Shown here: one piece after another, positions 41,079-46,147 of the stretch | Numbering within the stretch: position 1 is the first letter of the stretch | How the letters are laid out: the number at the start of each line of letters is the position of its first letter | From: Dyadobacter sp. CECT 9275 | GTDB taxonomy: Bacteria > Bacteroidota > Bacteroidia > Cytophagales > Spirosomataceae | Reading direction: 5' to 3' | Assembly (NCBI RefSeq): GCF_907164905.1 | Contig: NZ_CAJRAF010000001.1 | Location: 124,001 to 188,000, forward strand | Length of the DNA: 64,000 bases | Made by a program: the position numbers and the translations under genes | Notes under the pieces: generated by a model | What the model saw: the letters and a program-made list of their open reading frames with translations, nothing else | Told to the model about the DNA's origin: nothing | Database searches by the model: none

Positions 41079-41118
41079 CCCTAACTGATCCACAAAAAGA
41101 TATTTGATTCTTTCAATC

Positions 41119-43641
41119 ATGAAAAAGACTATCAGCATTAATATAGGTGGCGTAATCTTTCATATAGAGGAGGATGGCTACGAAAAACTAAAGAACTACC
41201 TGACCTCTATCCAGCGGTATTTTGCTTCTTTCGCCGACAGCAAGGAAATTGTTTCGGATATTGAAGCGCGGGTGGCCGAGCGGTTCTGGAACAAACAGAA
41301 GTCGGATGGCAAGCAGGTGATCTCCCTGGAAGATGTTGAGGAGCTCATCACGGCCATGGGTACTGTGGCAGACTTTGAAGCCATAGAGCAGGCCGAAGAT
41401 ATCCTGGCTGACCCGCTGGAGACGGCACGGGAAGAAACGTTTACGGCACAGGAAGAACCCAAGGCTTATTCCGAACCTAAAGCGGAAGCGAAAAAACAGC
41501 CTGCAGCAAGCTCCCGGAAATTATTCCGTGACCTGCGCCGGAAACTGATCGGTGGTGTGGCGGCTGGTCTGGCCAATTATTTTACAATTGATCCGATCTG
41601 GGTCCGGCTGGCATTTTTATTTGCAGTGGTAGGCCTTCCTGCCGGATCGGGTATGCTGGATTTTGGTAATGCCGGTGATCTGGCGGGAGTATCAGGATTT
41701 GCCGTGCTGATTTACATTGCCATGTGGATCGCATTTCCGGGGTCCTTAACACTGGAAGAGGATGCAACGGTCAAGAAGTTCTACCGAGATCCGGACCGCA
41801 AGGTGGTAAGTGGTGTGGCGGCAGGGGTTGCATCTTATTTTGGGATAGACTTGGGCGTGGTGCGTTTTCTGTGGGTACTCTCGATACTATTGTTCGGGAC
41901 CGGCGTGATTATTTATATCGTTCTTGGGGTGATAGCGCCTTCGGCCAACACCTTGACTGAAAAAATGGAAATGCAGGGTGAGCCCATCACGCTTTCCAAT
42001 ATTGAATCCAATATTAAACAGAGCCTTGATCCAGATGCAAAGGCTGGTGAGGAACACATTGTTAGCAAAATATTACTGTTGCCTTTTCGTGCCATCGCGC
42101 TGATCATCGGAGCCTTGGGGAAGTTATTAAAGGGGCTTGGCCCGGTGGTGAGGATACTGATAGGCGTAATACTGGTGGGGTTTTCATCCATTTCACTGCT
42201 GACGCTTGTTGTGGGCAGCGCCATTGCCCTGGGACTGATGAATTCGGTACAGTTTGATAACCTGCCGGTACCTTTTATGATATTCCAGGAATTACCGGGA
42301 AGCCTGATTTTATCGGGAATCCTGGTGGCTGCCATTCCTCTGGTTTTCCTTCTCCTGCTCGGGCTGACACTTCTTTCCAATAAAAAGATCGTATCCGGTA
42401 CGGTATGGCTGACACTGGCCGGGCTCTGGATTGTAGGGATCATTGGCGCCACGATTGGCGGTGTGGCTTATCAACGCAATTTCGCAAAACGCGGAGAGGT
42501 GGTTCAGACAACTTTTTACGCCTTACCGACAGGTACCTTAACATTAGATCACAATGGGATTTACGAGGAAGATAATGTGGATTTAGATATTTTTCTTGAA
42601 GGGTATGGTTCATCAGACAGTATTAAACTGGAAAAGACTTTGTTCTCGAGAGGAAGGTCCAGAGAGGAGGCAGAAAAAATGGCACAAAGCATAGAATATG
42701 ATATTACTGTAAACGATTCCCTGTTCCTATTTAAAGAAGGCCCGCAGCGGAGTGCCGGCAGATTCCGGGAGCAGAATGTAGATGCCAAGCTTTTTGTCCC
42801 CTATAACATGCCGTTTGTAATGACCCGGAATTTTTATGAGTCGATGAGCCGCTGGGGAGATAATTATCAGAATATAGGCAAATACGATCTGGAGAATGGG
42901 GAGCTGAACTGGAGAAATCTGAGGTGGGTCATGCGTCGGGATTCAGGGCTAATTTGTACCAATTTTCCCGCAAAATTCCTGAAGCACGATGAAGAACAGG
43001 AGGACGAAAATTATTCATACGACGGAGATGATAACGGAGAAATCGATCTGGGGGAGAGAGGGACTTTTATGAAACAGTTTCCTGTAGGGGATTTCACAAA
43101 GGTTGACCTGGGAGGTGCTTATTCCATCACTCTTAAGCACGGAACAGAATACAGTGTAACAGCAGACGGTGATGAAAAAGACGTGGACGACCTGAAAGTA
43201 AAAGTGGATGGTGGTGTACTGAAAGTAAGTCGCTTCAGTAATTTTTCGCTGCTCGAAGGAAGTAACAAACGCATTGGTTTTGTTATTACTACTCCTCAAC
43301 TGGAAGCGGTAAGTATCTCCGGTGCGAACAAGGCCAGGATATTCGGTTTCAAAGGATTATCAAAACTGGATGTGGATATTTCCGGTGCTTCCCAGTCGGA
43401 GATAAACGTAGAAACCGACCAGCTGCGTGCGGAGATTTCCGGTGCTTCAAAGGTCATATTCAAGGGGTCGGCACGCTCAGCAACGATGGATCTGTCGGGT
43501 GCCTGTAAAGTGGAGGCCACTGAAATGAACATTCAGAATGCAGATGTTTCCGCTTCCGGAGCTTCCAAGGTAAGCCTGGGCCGGGTAAACAATATCAAAA
43601 AGAGCGAAAACGGAGCCAGTAAAATAGAGGTTATAGAGTAA
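41119..43641 (+). CDS. Double PspC-domain membrane protein with C-terminal GIN domain
   Basis: About 840 residues from the ATG at 41119. Residues 1-90 are a cytoplasmic alpha/beta domain ('TISINIGGVIFHIEEDGYEKLKNYL'). PspC domains lie at about 130-205 ('RKLIGGVAAGLANYFTIDPIWVR') and 220-280 ('RKVVSGVAAGVASYFGIDLGVVR'), followed by membrane helices to about 460. Residues 470-640 are extracytoplasmic. Residues 650-840 form a GIN/DUF2807 beta-solenoid with repeated 'SGAS' turns. It links PspC-type envelope-stress sensing with an extracytoplasmic solenoid. It follows the PadR gene, and a second, secreted GIN protein follows it. Confidence 0.85.
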   Translation: MKKTISINIGGVIFHIEEDGYEKLKNYLTSIQRYFASFADSKEIVSDIEARVAERFWNKQKSDGKQVISLEDVEELITAMGTVADFEAIEQAEDILADPLETAREETFTAQEEPKAYSEPKAEAKKQPAASSRKLFRDLRRKLIGGVAAGLANYFTIDPIWVRLAFLFAVVGLPAGSGMLDFGNAGDLAGVSGFAVLIYIAMWIAFPGSLTLEEDATVKKFYRDPDRKVVSGVAAGVASYFGIDLGVVRFLWVLSILLFGTGVIIYIVLGVIAPSANTLTEKMEMQGEPITLSNIESNIKQSLDPDAKAGEEHIVSKILLLPFRAIALIIGALGKLLKGLGPVVRILIGVILVGFSSISLLTLVVGSAIALGLMNSVQFDNLPVPFMIFQELPGSLILSGILVAAIPLVFLLLLGLTLLSNKKIVSGTVWLTLAGLWIVGIIGATIGGVAYQRNFAKRGEVVQTTFYALPTGTLTLDHNGIYEEDNVDLDIFLEGYGSSDSIKLEKTLFSRGRSREEAEKMAQSIEYDITVNDSLFLFKEGPQRSAGRFREQNVDAKLFVPYNMPFVMTRNFYESMSRWGDNYQNIGKYDLENGELNWRNLRWVMRRDSGLICTNFPAKFLKHDEEQEDENYSYDGDDNGEIDLGERGTFMKQFPVGDFTKVDLGGAYSITLKHGTEYSVTADGDEKDVDDLKVKVDGGVLKVSRFSNFSLLEGSNKRIGFVITTPQLEAVSISGANKARIFGFKGLSKLDVDISGASQSEINVETDQLRAEISGASKVIFKGSARSATMDLSGACKVEATEMNIQNADVSASGASKVSLGRVNNIKKSENGASKIEVIE

Positions 43642-43752: not shown

Positions 43753-44439
43753 ATGAAAAAAACAATTGCTACCTTCATGATGCTCGTCGCTGTTACAGCT
43801 GTAACAATGGCGCAGGATACCCGAAAATTTTCAGTATCCGACTTTGATAAACTTTCGATGGGAAGTGCATTCAGGATAGAAGTTAAACAGGGAAAGGAAT
43901 ACAGCGTCGTCACCAGCGGGAGAAGAGAAGATCTGGATGATCTGAGTGCTTTAGTAAAAGGAGGTGTGCTTAAATTAGGGTATAAATCCGGAGGCTGGAA
44001 TAACAATCATAAATCCGTCACCGTAAATATCACCATGCCGACATTGGAAGGAGTAGATTTTTCCGGCGCAAGCAGGGCCAATGTTTCTGCCTTCACGGGT
44101 GCCAAGCAGATGGTTATTGAGGTATCCGGTGCTTCCCAGGTAACGATGGACTTCTCGGCACCAAAGGTAACTTTCGACCTTTCGGGAGCTTCGTCACTCA
44201 TTCTTACAGGCTCGTGTAACGTGCTGAACGGCGAGGTTTCAGGCGCATCTTCTTTTAAAGGGAGAGATTTCAGTAGCAAAGAGGTAAATATTGATGCATC
44301 GGGTGCCAGCAGTGCTTATGTAATGGCCAGTAATGTGATTCACGCCGAAGCCAGTGGCGCCAGCAGAGTAAGGTATTCAGGTGCAGCAAAAGATATCCAT
44401 TCCAGTAGTTCGGGTGCCAGTTCGGTTAAGAGGGACTAG
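43753..44439 (+). CDS. Secreted GIN-domain (DUF2807) protein
   Basis: 228 residues with a signal peptide (MKKTIATFMMLVAVTAVTMAQ). The mature part is one GIN/DUF2807 domain, a right-handed solenoid with a regular 'SGAS' turn about every 20 residues (FSGASRAN, VSGASQVT, LSGASSLI, VSGASSFK, ASGASSAY, ASGASRVR). It closely resembles the C-terminal domain of the upstream PspC protein, so domain duplication is likely. Probably periplasmic or outer-membrane associated; function unknown. Last gene of the PadR operon. Confidence 0.85.
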   Translation: MKKTIATFMMLVAVTAVTMAQDTRKFSVSDFDKLSMGSAFRIEVKQGKEYSVVTSGRREDLDDLSALVKGGVLKLGYKSGGWNNNHKSVTVNITMPTLEGVDFSGASRANVSAFTGAKQMVIEVSGASQVTMDFSAPKVTFDLSGASSLILTGSCNVLNGEVSGASSFKGRDFSSKEVNIDASGASSAYVMASNVIHAEASGASRVRYSGAAKDIHSSSSGASSVKRD

Positions 44440-44464: not shown

Positions 44465-44490
44465 AGCCGGTTTTTACCGACTTTTTTTTC
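44465..44490 (+). terminator. Terminator of the PadR-PspC-GIN operon
   Basis: AG-c-CGGT pairs with ACCG-a-CT around TTTT (44465-44482), followed by an uninterrupted T-run. It lies 25 bases after the GIN gene and just outside the insertion sequence. Confidence 0.6.
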
Positions 44491-44514
44491 TGAAAGTCTC
44501 TTCTGAACCCGAAT

Positions 44515-44685
44515 ACCCACAGCAATCCCAAGATCGCAGATCGATCTAAGCGATTTTCCTCTTAGAGAAAAATTTTTTCTACGTGCTCTATGGCAACAGC
44601 TGTGGGTGCTTAGCGTCTGTTATCAGTTTTGTTAACGGGGTATAGTCCACCAAAAAAAGCCTCGACCTTTCTATTGGGACGCTAA
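44515..44685 (-). ncRNA. Candidate bridge RNA (seekRNA) of the IS110 element
   Basis: On the minus strand, starting in the last codons of the transposase gene, TTAGCGTC pairs with GACGCTAA (44685-44678 with 44617-44610), enclosing 60 bases. Two bases later, ACCCACAGC pairs with GCTGTGGGT (44607-44599 with 44523-44515), enclosing 75 bases that contain smaller hairpins. The two adjacent closed loops span 171 bases. Bridge RNAs of IS110-family recombinases have one target-binding and one donor-binding loop and are about this size; in the IS1111 group they are encoded after the transposase. Guide sequences were not assigned with confidence. Confidence 0.5.
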
Positions 44686-45894
44686 TATTTTCAACTTTCT
44701 CACCCGGTTTTCCAACCGTTGGATTTCAGCTTTCCTTCTTTCGATCAGGATTTCAGCTTTCAGGGTTGGTTCCTTGTAAGGTAGTTTATCCCGAAGGATA
44801 TGGTATGCAGCTGTTAGTATCTGATGGGCGATAGCCATTGCCGCCTTTTTCTTTCCTCGCCTCTGCGCCAGTTTGTGGTACTTGAATGACAAGAAAGTGT
44901 TCAGGGTATGGCTGGCAGCCCAGGAAGCTTCGATCAATGTGGTTTTCAAATAGGTATTTCCGTGGGTTATCCTTGCTGACCTTACTTTACCCGCACTCTC
45001 GTTATTTCTCGGGCAGACCCCGGCCCAGGAAGCCAGGTGTTTGTCAGAGAGAAACTGGGACATATCCAGACCGATTTCTGATACGATACCAATAGCTGAT
45101 TGCCTTGACACACCCGGGATGGTTTGTAGCAATGCGAGCTCGGCCTGCTTATCGGCCAGGCAAAGTTCTATCTGCTGGTCAAGCTGGCTGATGAGCTCGT
45201 CTAAGGCATGCATCGTCTGGATAATCAAGCTCAACATAAAACGGTGGCGTTCACAGAAGCGGCCGTAAAGTGCTTGCTGCAAAGCTTGCTTTTTGTTCAC
45301 CAGCGAACCTTTGGCCTGGTTTGATAACACAACAGGATCGGTAACACCGGCCAATAACAAATCTATAATCCCCTGCCCGGTTTTGGAAAACACATCGCTG
45401 ACCACGCTGCCGAGCTTAATGTTGGCATCCTCTAAGATATTTTGTAAGCGATTCTTTTCCCTGCTGCGCTCATTGACCAGCTTTTTACGGTGTCGCAGCA
45501 ATGTTCTTAGCTCTCGCACCCAGCTTTCGGGGACAAAACTATGCCGGAGAAGACCACTCAAAAGTAGTTTAGCGATCCATTCAGAATCCTTTTTATCGGT
45601 TTTATGGCCGGGAACATTCTTGATATGACGGGCATTAACCAAAATAATCTCAAAGCTGCCTTCCAAAACATAATATACAGGCCGCCAGTAAACGCCGGTA
45701 CTCTCCATAGCAATATGGGTAATCTGGTGGTCCTCAAGCCATTGCAACAACTCTTCCAGATCTTTGGTGAACGTGGCGAAGGTCCGGGTTTCTTCCTTGA
45801 TTCCAGTTCCTTTGATCGAAGCAACTACTGTATCTTTGTGTACGTCCAGGCCACAACCTCGGGCTATGAGCTGGGGGAATTCTACTACTGCCAT
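44671..45894 (-). CDS. IS110 family transposase (DEDD recombinase)
   Basis: 407 residues, full length. The N-terminal RuvC-like DEDD domain shows Asp in 'GCGLDVHKDTVVASI' near 17, Glu in 'HIAMESTGVYWRPVYYVL' near 64, and Asp pair in 'HKTDKKDSEWIAKLLL' near 100. A helical middle region follows, and the C-terminal Tnp domain has 'LLQTIPGVSRQSAIGIVSEIG' near 260 and 'WAGVCPRNNESAGKVRSARITHGN' near 297, with the catalytic Ser region. Related enzymes use a bridge RNA to pair target and donor DNA. Intact and probably functional. A hairpin covers the bases just before the ATG. Confidence 0.95.
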   Translation of the reverse strand: MAVVEFPQLIARGCGLDVHKDTVVASIKGTGIKEETRTFATFTKDLEELLQWLEDHQITHIAMESTGVYWRPVYYVLEGSFEIILVNARHIKNVPGHKTDKKDSEWIAKLLLSGLLRHSFVPESWVRELRTLLRHRKKLVNERSREKNRLQNILEDANIKLGSVVSDVFSKTGQGIIDLLLAGVTDPVVLSNQAKGSLVNKKQALQQALYGRFCERHRFMLSLIIQTMHALDELISQLDQQIELCLADKQAELALLQTIPGVSRQSAIGIVSEIGLDMSQFLSDKHLASWAGVCPRNNESAGKVRSARITHGNTYLKTTLIEASWAASHTLNTFLSFKYHKLAQRRGKKKAAMAIAHQILTAAYHILRDKLPYKEPTLKAEILIERRKAEIQRLENRVRKLKILASQ

Positions 45895-45927
45895 GTCGTT
45901 TGATAGGTTGGTCTCTATTTAAACGAC
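45895..45927 (-). promoter_or_regulatory. Hairpin abutting the transposase start codon
   Basis: GTCGTTT (45895-45901) pairs with AAACGAC (45921-45927), extended by ATAG/CTAT, around a short loop. It ends exactly at the base before the ATG on the minus strand and would hide the translation start in the RNA. A role in limiting transposase synthesis is an inference. Confidence 0.45.
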
Positions 45928-46147
45928 TTTCATGCGCGTGGGTGAATTCCCCAATTCATAATTGTTTTGTTTTGTTATATACCGAAGTTCAGACTTATTA
46001 AGTTAAGAGTAATATATTTACGAACTTTTACCTTCTTCTGTCATTTCATCGTTTATGGTTAAAGTATGCTTTAAACAGTTTTTGGTATAATTTTAAATGG
46101 TGGAATCTTGTATCACTTTTTAATTGCAGGGAAGAAAAAGATCGCAA

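What the first reader, a model, noticed from the sequence alone, without database searches (positions are those of the whole stretch)
44515..44685. Two-loop structured RNA at the transposase 3' end: probable bridge RNA
Two perfect stems (8 and 9 bp) close loops of 60 and 75 bases in tandem across 171 bases, beginning inside the transposase 3' end. This is the layout and size of bridge/seekRNAs that direct IS110-family recombinases. The 9-mer GTTTTGTTA occurs both in the first loop (44626-44634) and beyond the other end of the element (45969-45977), a weak candidate guide match.
Basis: partly seen in the sequence, partly recalled or inferred. Interest (0 to 1): 0.7.

Follow-up and report, generated by a model that had tools for sequence, protein, structure and literature searches.

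The report
Bridge RNA aiming at gene terminators
A small mobile DNA element in a bacterium appears to carry its own guide RNA that steers it into the stop signals at the ends of genes, while relatives with the same kind of RNA appear to be steered to the starts of genes instead.

Summary
The 8-bp stem is conserved and covaries in its clade; the 9-bp stem exists but is broken in three of four other Dyadobacter-type RNAs. The 'weak' 9-mer is the left-target guide and its target: guide and left flank agree at 8.55 of 10 bases over 20 elements against 6.32 for mismatched pairs (0 of 20,000 permutations). Predicting left junctions from the guide alone gave five matches in a genome whose left ends I had not seen, all five real element ends. 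Orthologous empty sites show the flank is native target. The target is the A-tract plus stem base of intrinsic terminators: 20 of 27 sites have a stem there, against 17 of 127 other A-tracts. Sister elements are programmed to ATGAAA start codons. RNA position and guide order are IS1111-like; transposase length and ends are not. Bridge RNAs are known; terminator targeting was not found in ten capped, open-access paper searches. Transcription and activity are untested.

The parts
44481..45971 (-). insertion sequence: stretch shared by all three own-genome copies (exact ends ambiguous inside A-runs)
   Evidence: (matches end at query 88/90 and 1580)
44671..45894 (-). IS110-family DEDD transposase, 407 aa
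   Evidence: empty sites
45944..45957 (-). LE inverted repeat GAATTGGGGAATTC
   Evidence: similar small hairpins by eye in relatives
45935..45944 (-). LE box CACCCACGCG, related to the RNA box at 44600-44608
   Evidence: 17 elements, 0 of 20,000 permutations
45925..45933 (-). LE subterminal repeat ATGAAAGTC (8 bp complementary to RE)
   Evidence: (I13)
44678..44685 (-). outer stem, 5' arm (UUAGCGUC), inside tnp CDS
44663..44666 (-). inner stem, 5' arm (GUCG)
44652..44661 (-). right-target guide GGCUUUUUUU (complement of A-tract plus stem base)
   Evidence: 179 of 20,000 permutations reach it
44647..44652 (-). apical hairpin, 5' arm (UGGUGG)
44636..44640 (-). apical hairpin, 3' arm (CCCCG)
44626..44635 (-). 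left-target guide UUAACAAAAC
   Evidence: 0 of 20,000
44622..44625 (-). inner stem, 3' arm (UGAU)
44610..44617 (-). outer stem, 3' arm (GACGCUAA)
44600..44608 (-). RNA box CACCCACAG
44583..44597 (-). donor-domain hairpin GUUGCCAUAGAGCAC
   Evidence: one pair with compensatory change
44573..44582 (-). donor-guide-like segment GUAGAAAAAA (resembles RE end CAGAAAA)
   Evidence: (26 of 20,000), partly circular
44490..44498 (-). RE subterminal repeat GACTTTCAG
44482..44489 (-). A-tract (core/right target; T8 on the plus strand)
44466..44481 (.). hairpin of the host terminator (one mismatched pair: G.U on minus, C.A on plus), 26 bp after the stop of the plus-strand gene 43753-44439
   Evidence: not listed on the plus strand by the simple scan

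Best explanation
An IS110-family insertion sequence, in a bacterium most likely of the genus Dyadobacter, encodes a bridge RNA in its 3' non-coding end on the tnp strand. [quoted passage not shown] The second domain probably recognises the element's own ends. By analogy with IS621 and IS1111 elements the recombinase uses this RNA to join the circle junction to the target inside a shared A-run. The target is the U-tract/stem foot of intrinsic terminators, so insertions fall just behind genes, and the A-run on the RE side leaves the hairpin beside a full tract. Shown by sequence: RNA conservation, guide/flank agreement, empty sites, hairpin enrichment. Inferred: transcription, binding, circle intermediate, crossover point, the benefit of using terminators.
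For: Domain assignment. Structure conservation with compensatory changes. Left guide tracks left flank: 20 elements 8.55 against 6.32 of 10; 12 diverged lineages 8.67 against 5.61; 0 of 20,000 each. Right guide 7.13 against 6.55, 179 of 20,000, 15 elements. Forward prediction: 5 of 5 matches in G474 are element left ends with five different flanks. Empty sites: 9 of 9 read AAACAAAA at the foot of a GC hairpin; at a second locus 4 of 19 read AAACAAAAAG exactly. Terminator stems: 20 of 27 sites against 17 of 127 A6+ tracts; G474 6 of 6.
Against: No transcript evidence. The right-guide signal is modest because A-runs are shared. The donor-guide test is partly circular. Five of 10 sites outside Dyadobacter and G474 have no stem (L023, L024, L025, L035, L052), and 2 of 11 Dyadobacter sites fail the strict test, the window's own among them. 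Guide-like motifs are not enriched in the genome (97+93 against 117+71 for the reversed pattern). 15 of 19 loci at the second empty site differ or do not align there.
Confidence: 0.9

Rival explanations
1. It is a bridge RNA, but the link to terminators is survival bias: the guide specifies only a short A-rich motif and only insertions in harmless places such as gene ends persist.
For: The motif is common (190 pattern matches in the genome, no more than the reversed control, 188) and 12 of 31 pattern sites read also have a stem of 4 bp or more. In the window 0 of 10 AACAAAA+G sites have a stem of 5 bp or more, so the motif alone does not select terminators.
Against: The right guide reads through the A-tract into the stem base (GGC in the window element), and occupied sites are richer in stems of 6 bp or more (15 of 27) than pattern sites in the genome (5 of 31).
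Confidence: 0.4
2. It is a full member of the IS1111 group with a seekRNA.
For: RNA downstream of tnp; [quoted passage not shown] an 8-bp subterminal repeat exists.
Against: Transposase 407 aa against 330-350 aa; subterminal repeat 8 bp and more than 30 bp from LE instead of 11-13 bp with 7/3-bp extensions. The same paper says some IS110-type elements have a downstream NCR.
Confidence: 0.12
3. The structure is only a folded 3' end of the tnp mRNA (stability element or attenuator) and the flank match is an internal repeat of the element.
For: The first arm overlaps the CDS; transcription as a separate RNA is unproven; the flank positions -8 to -1 are constant among Dyadobacter copies.
Against: The loop segment follows the flank across lineages, the flank is present in empty orthologous sites, and model R1 plus the guide predicted left ends elsewhere.
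Confidence: 0.04

Closest known systems
IS1111-family seekRNAs, e.g. ISEc11, ISPa11, ISKpn4 (PMC11187229: abstract, sections 6, 13, 14 and passages)
   Same: RNA in the NCR downstream of tnp; top-strand complement comes first, bottom-strand match second; some members sit at palindromic targets (REP, attC)
   Different: 407-aa transposase; weak, distant subterminal repeat; target is an intrinsic terminator
IS621 bridge RNA, IS110 group (PMC11208160: passages; section 12)
   Same: Same recombinase family (8wt6, E 1.1e-16); two RNA domains for target and donor; two-strand pairing that includes the core
   Different: IS621 RNA lies in LE and its 5' side pairs the bottom strand; here the RNA lies in RE and the order is reversed; IS621 targets REP elements
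IS900 of Mycobacterium avium subsp. paratuberculosis (PMC8141618: passages)
   Same: IS110 family, no terminal inverted repeats, motif starting CATG; its reference list cites a paper titled 'IS900 targets translation initiation signals' (title only seen), a precedent for the start-codon sisters
   Different: Not aimed at terminators; its RNA was not examined here
IS elements at REP sequences (PMC1525189: abstract and outline)
   Same: Specific insertion at extragenic palindromes
   Different: REPs share sequence; terminators share only the tract and a stem

Membership tests
IS110 family (broad) | DEDD N-terminal and PF02371 C-terminal domains | tested here: met
   NCBIfam NF033542 288.8 bits, cut-off 140
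IS110 family (broad) | Non-coding end with a structured RNA | tested here: met
   transcription not tested
Bridge RNA / seekRNA | Target loop complementary to both strands of the target | tested here: met
   left guide (0 of 20,000); right guide (179 of 20,000)
Bridge RNA / seekRNA | Donor loop complementary to the element ends | tested here: inconclusive
   (26 of 20,000 for one guide, RE of five elements placed partly by this similarity); the other donor guide was only judged by eye
Bridge RNA / seekRNA | RNA is made and binds the recombinase | not testable with these tools
   needs RNA sequencing and purification
IS1111 group | Longer NCR downstream of tnp | tested here: met
   about 190 nt downstream against about 80 nt upstream
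IS1111 group | Top-strand complement precedes bottom-strand match | tested here: met
   criterion from PMC11187229
IS1111 group | Subterminal repeats of 11-13 bp with 7-bp and 3-bp extensions | tested here: not met
   8 bp, 31 bp from the first LE base
IS1111 group | Transposase of 330-350 aa | tested here: not met
   407 aa; the subgroup with IS110 itself is 395-455 aa

The most novel reading that the evidence does not exclude
A Bacteroidota clade of IS110 elements has bridge RNAs programmed to gene punctuation rather than to a repeat or a fixed locus: one lineage reads intrinsic terminators (A-tract plus stem base), its sister reads start codons (ATGAAA). In both, the element's own end carries a copy of the split signal, so insertion leaves a complete terminator tract or start codon beside RE and spares the gene. 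One RNA fold has thus been re-aimed between gene ends and gene starts.
Probability: 0.6. Interest if true: 0.75.

Novelty: new variant of a known kind. Interest (0 to 1): 0.62.

Why it matters
Bridge RNAs are known, but in the passages I read their targets were repeats or short fixed sites. Here the guides match a functional signal found behind many genes (general knowledge), where insertion is likely tolerated, and a sister lineage matches start codons. That gives a natural series of guide changes with matched sites for a 3'-encoded bridge RNA on a roughly 400-aa enzyme, against which guide, core and donor rules can be checked, and makes the question of how such elements spare their host directly testable.

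Tried and rejected
Rfam: one below-threshold nematode snoRNA match at 45690-45766, E 0.67. Viral contigs: one stretch matched a pattern, none encoded a relative. Plasmids: 79 records, best place under 60% identity in each; not followed. Protein searches of class and phylum samples added one element, L054 (3 of 395 and 2 of 395 genomes).

A first donor-guide test used a wrong column window and showed nothing (194 of 20,000); the corrected window is. The consensus fold of the seven-element second clade is poor on a MAFFT alignment; its donor-closing stem was tested by permutation instead. I found no conserved donor-closing stem for the window's own clade.

Rows dropped: L005 had no recognisable LE and was left out of the guide tests; its right flank was mis-extracted and not used. 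L032 was left out and because its contig ends at RE. Six further copies of the same elements (L044, L045, L047-L050) were not rows. Of the 32 places, 15 were read, 11 were copies already known (G000 three, G151 six, G410 one, G353 one) and 6 were not analysed (two G424 places without loci, the second G353 place, G394, G466, G503). Of 47 genus genomes matching, 19 other than G151 were fetched. No structure prediction, fold search or large protein search was run, as the family was already clear.

Full report
What is there. The transposase is on the minus strand (45894-44671, 407 aa) and is an IS110-family RNA-guided recombinase (Pfam; NCBIfam NF033542; IS621 and ISCro4 are the solved relatives found). 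The genome holds three copies. Among 48 genus genomes searched, G151 holds six copies and G205 and G207 one each at about 90% protein identity. L021 and L022, named Dyadobacter records, have the same flanks as the G205 and G207 copies, so the host is most likely Dyadobacter; that is inference.

Checking the observation. As minus-strand RNA, 44515-44690 is more stable than its shuffles (z -3.29, 2 of 200 as good). The upstream non-coding end is about 80 nt and the downstream one about 190 nt, so the RNA lies downstream of tnp and its first arm is inside the CDS.

Conserved structure. 98.3% of cells pair, against 28-47% with partners slid by 1-3 columns. The percentage paired, the cells with changes on both sides and the covariation score were reached by 0 of 500 shuffles, but pairs changed on both sides by 35 of 500 and further pair types by 484 of 500 (the structure came from this alignment). 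In seven other relatives the segment that forms the outer stem here pairs instead with a downstream arm and closes the donor domain (for example AAGGCCAAG with CTTGGCC). With partners permuted over 17 elements: donor-closing stem 13.94 against 10.83, 0 of 20,000; outer target stem 13.0 against 11.25, 9 of 20,000.

Guides. The left-target guide was placed by a conserved TGA/TGG behind it, and the left flank by a fixed distance to the LE motif ATGA, so neither was fitted to the other. Over 20 elements they agree at 8.55 of 10 positions against 6.32 for mismatched pairs; over 12 diverged lineages 8.67 against 5.61; 0 of 20,000 permutations each. At positions -8, -6, -5 and -1, 11 or 12 of 12 lineages agree where 3.8-6.7 are expected. 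The right-target guide is the reverse complement of the A-tract and stem base on the RE side: 7.13 against 6.55, 179 of 20,000, 15 elements, weaker because A-runs are shared. A donor guide resembling the RE end is suggested (16 elements, 26 of 20,000; 9 lineages, 68 of 20,000), but the RE of five elements was placed partly by that likeness.

Forward test. Covariance model R1, run on 380 genomes of the order, matched in 12. In G474 six copies were seen only as RNA plus right end, because contigs break inside the element. From its guide GAGCATAAAAC I predicted left junctions CATAAAACNNNNATGA. G474 had five matches and no backwards-control match; of the other four genomes only G410 had a match, one, which is not an element end; backwards controls were 2 in G151 and 2 in G424. 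All five G474 matches run on into the LE hairpin, box and subterminal repeat, behind five different flanks. A pattern for the start-codon guide found three places in G424, seven in G460 and one in G474, against one backwards control, in G000; the loci read all continue into an LE-like end.

Empty sites. led to nine relatives that keep the window site empty: 9 of 9 read AAACAAAA and then the foot of a GC-rich hairpin. For the G151 site L045, 19 orthologous loci were read: 4 read AAACAAAAAG exactly before the hairpin, 2 read AAACAGAAAG, 13 differ further or do not align there. So the left flank is native target.

Targets are terminators. At 27 sites of the A-tract type I asked for a Watson-Crick stem of at least 4 bp starting within one base of the tract: 20 of 27, against 17 of 127 A6+ tracts of the window (Fisher 9e-10) and 399 of 3994 spaced positions. 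By group: Dyadobacter 9 of 11, G474 6 of 6, others 5 of 10. An energy version gave 19 of 27 against 27 of 127 and 70 of 400. The window's own site fails the strict test because one pair is mismatched (G.U on minus, C.A on plus); it folds at -6.8 to -8.0 kcal/mol, but the simple scan does not list it on the plus strand. It lies 26 bp after the stop of the plus-strand gene 43753-44439. The motif alone is not a terminator mark: 0 of 10 window matches of AACAAAA+G have a stem of 5 bp or more, and 190 genome matches of a guide-like pattern equal the reversed control of 188; of 31 such sites read, 12 have a stem of 4 bp or more and 5 of 6 bp or more. Either more than the motif is read, or selection removes other insertions; I cannot separate these.

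Start-codon sisters. In G424, G086, L034 and L054 the RE meets ATGAAA of open genes; names such as lipoprotein or PheT-like are judged by eye. Of 12 loci tested (13 ATGs), 8 open 100 aa or more, against 22 of 93 ATGAAA in the window; the misses are L127 (6 aa), L128 (3 and 4 aa; short repeats follow), L129 (43 aa) and L041 (16 aa). Their guides contain ATGAAA or AAGAAA (L041). IS900 is a precedent for translation starts (PMC8141618, passages), so start-codon targeting as such is not new.

Comparison. RNA position and guide order are those of IS1111 seekRNAs, but transposase length and ends are not (PMC11187229, sections 6, 13, 14 and passages), so I do not file it there. It works like a bridge RNA and is best filed as IS110 family with a 3' bridge RNA. 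Ten paper searches showed nothing on IS110/IS1111 elements aimed at intrinsic terminators; several lists were capped, the library is open-access only, and I read no paper whole. 'Terminator' does not occur in the main text of PMC11208160; in PMC11187229 it occurs three times, in the passages I saw as a construct part.

Inferred only: transcription, binding, circle formation, the crossover in the A-run, and any benefit of the restored tract (empty sites of the window locus have 4-7 A before the stem, occupied RE sides 7-9 in the Dyadobacter copies).

Noticed in passing
L138, L144, L147, L150 (G424); L131, L139 (G086); L034; L054: Sister elements with the same RNA fold sit at ATGAAA start codons; guide and RE end both contain ATGAAA, so the gene keeps a start codon.
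   Followed up: partly
window 45935-45944 and 44600-44608; 17 elements: A box in LE recurs in the RNA just before the donor hairpin in the same sense and varies with it across lineages (7.94 against 6.47 of 9, 0 of 20,000 permutations). Its role is unexplained.
   Followed up: partly
L159-L169 (G460, G424, G474); L128: Short repeats carrying the LE-like end ACATGAAATnnnnATGA...CACACAGGG, several without a transposase in view, look like small non-autonomous relatives of the start-codon elements.
   Followed up: no
L029, L052, L041, L053, L032, L034, L054 against L037 and its clade: The same RNA segment pairs upstream (closing the target loop) in one clade and downstream (closing the donor domain) in the other.
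   Followed up: partly
L112, L121, L122 (own genome): Unoccupied guide-matching terminators, e.g. AAACAAAAAGCCCCATC with an 8-bp stem, are candidate future targets.
   Followed up: no
window 41104-43641 and 43753-44439: Two neighbouring plus-strand genes share SGAS-type repeats in their C-terminal parts (by eye); the element sits behind the second.
   Followed up: no
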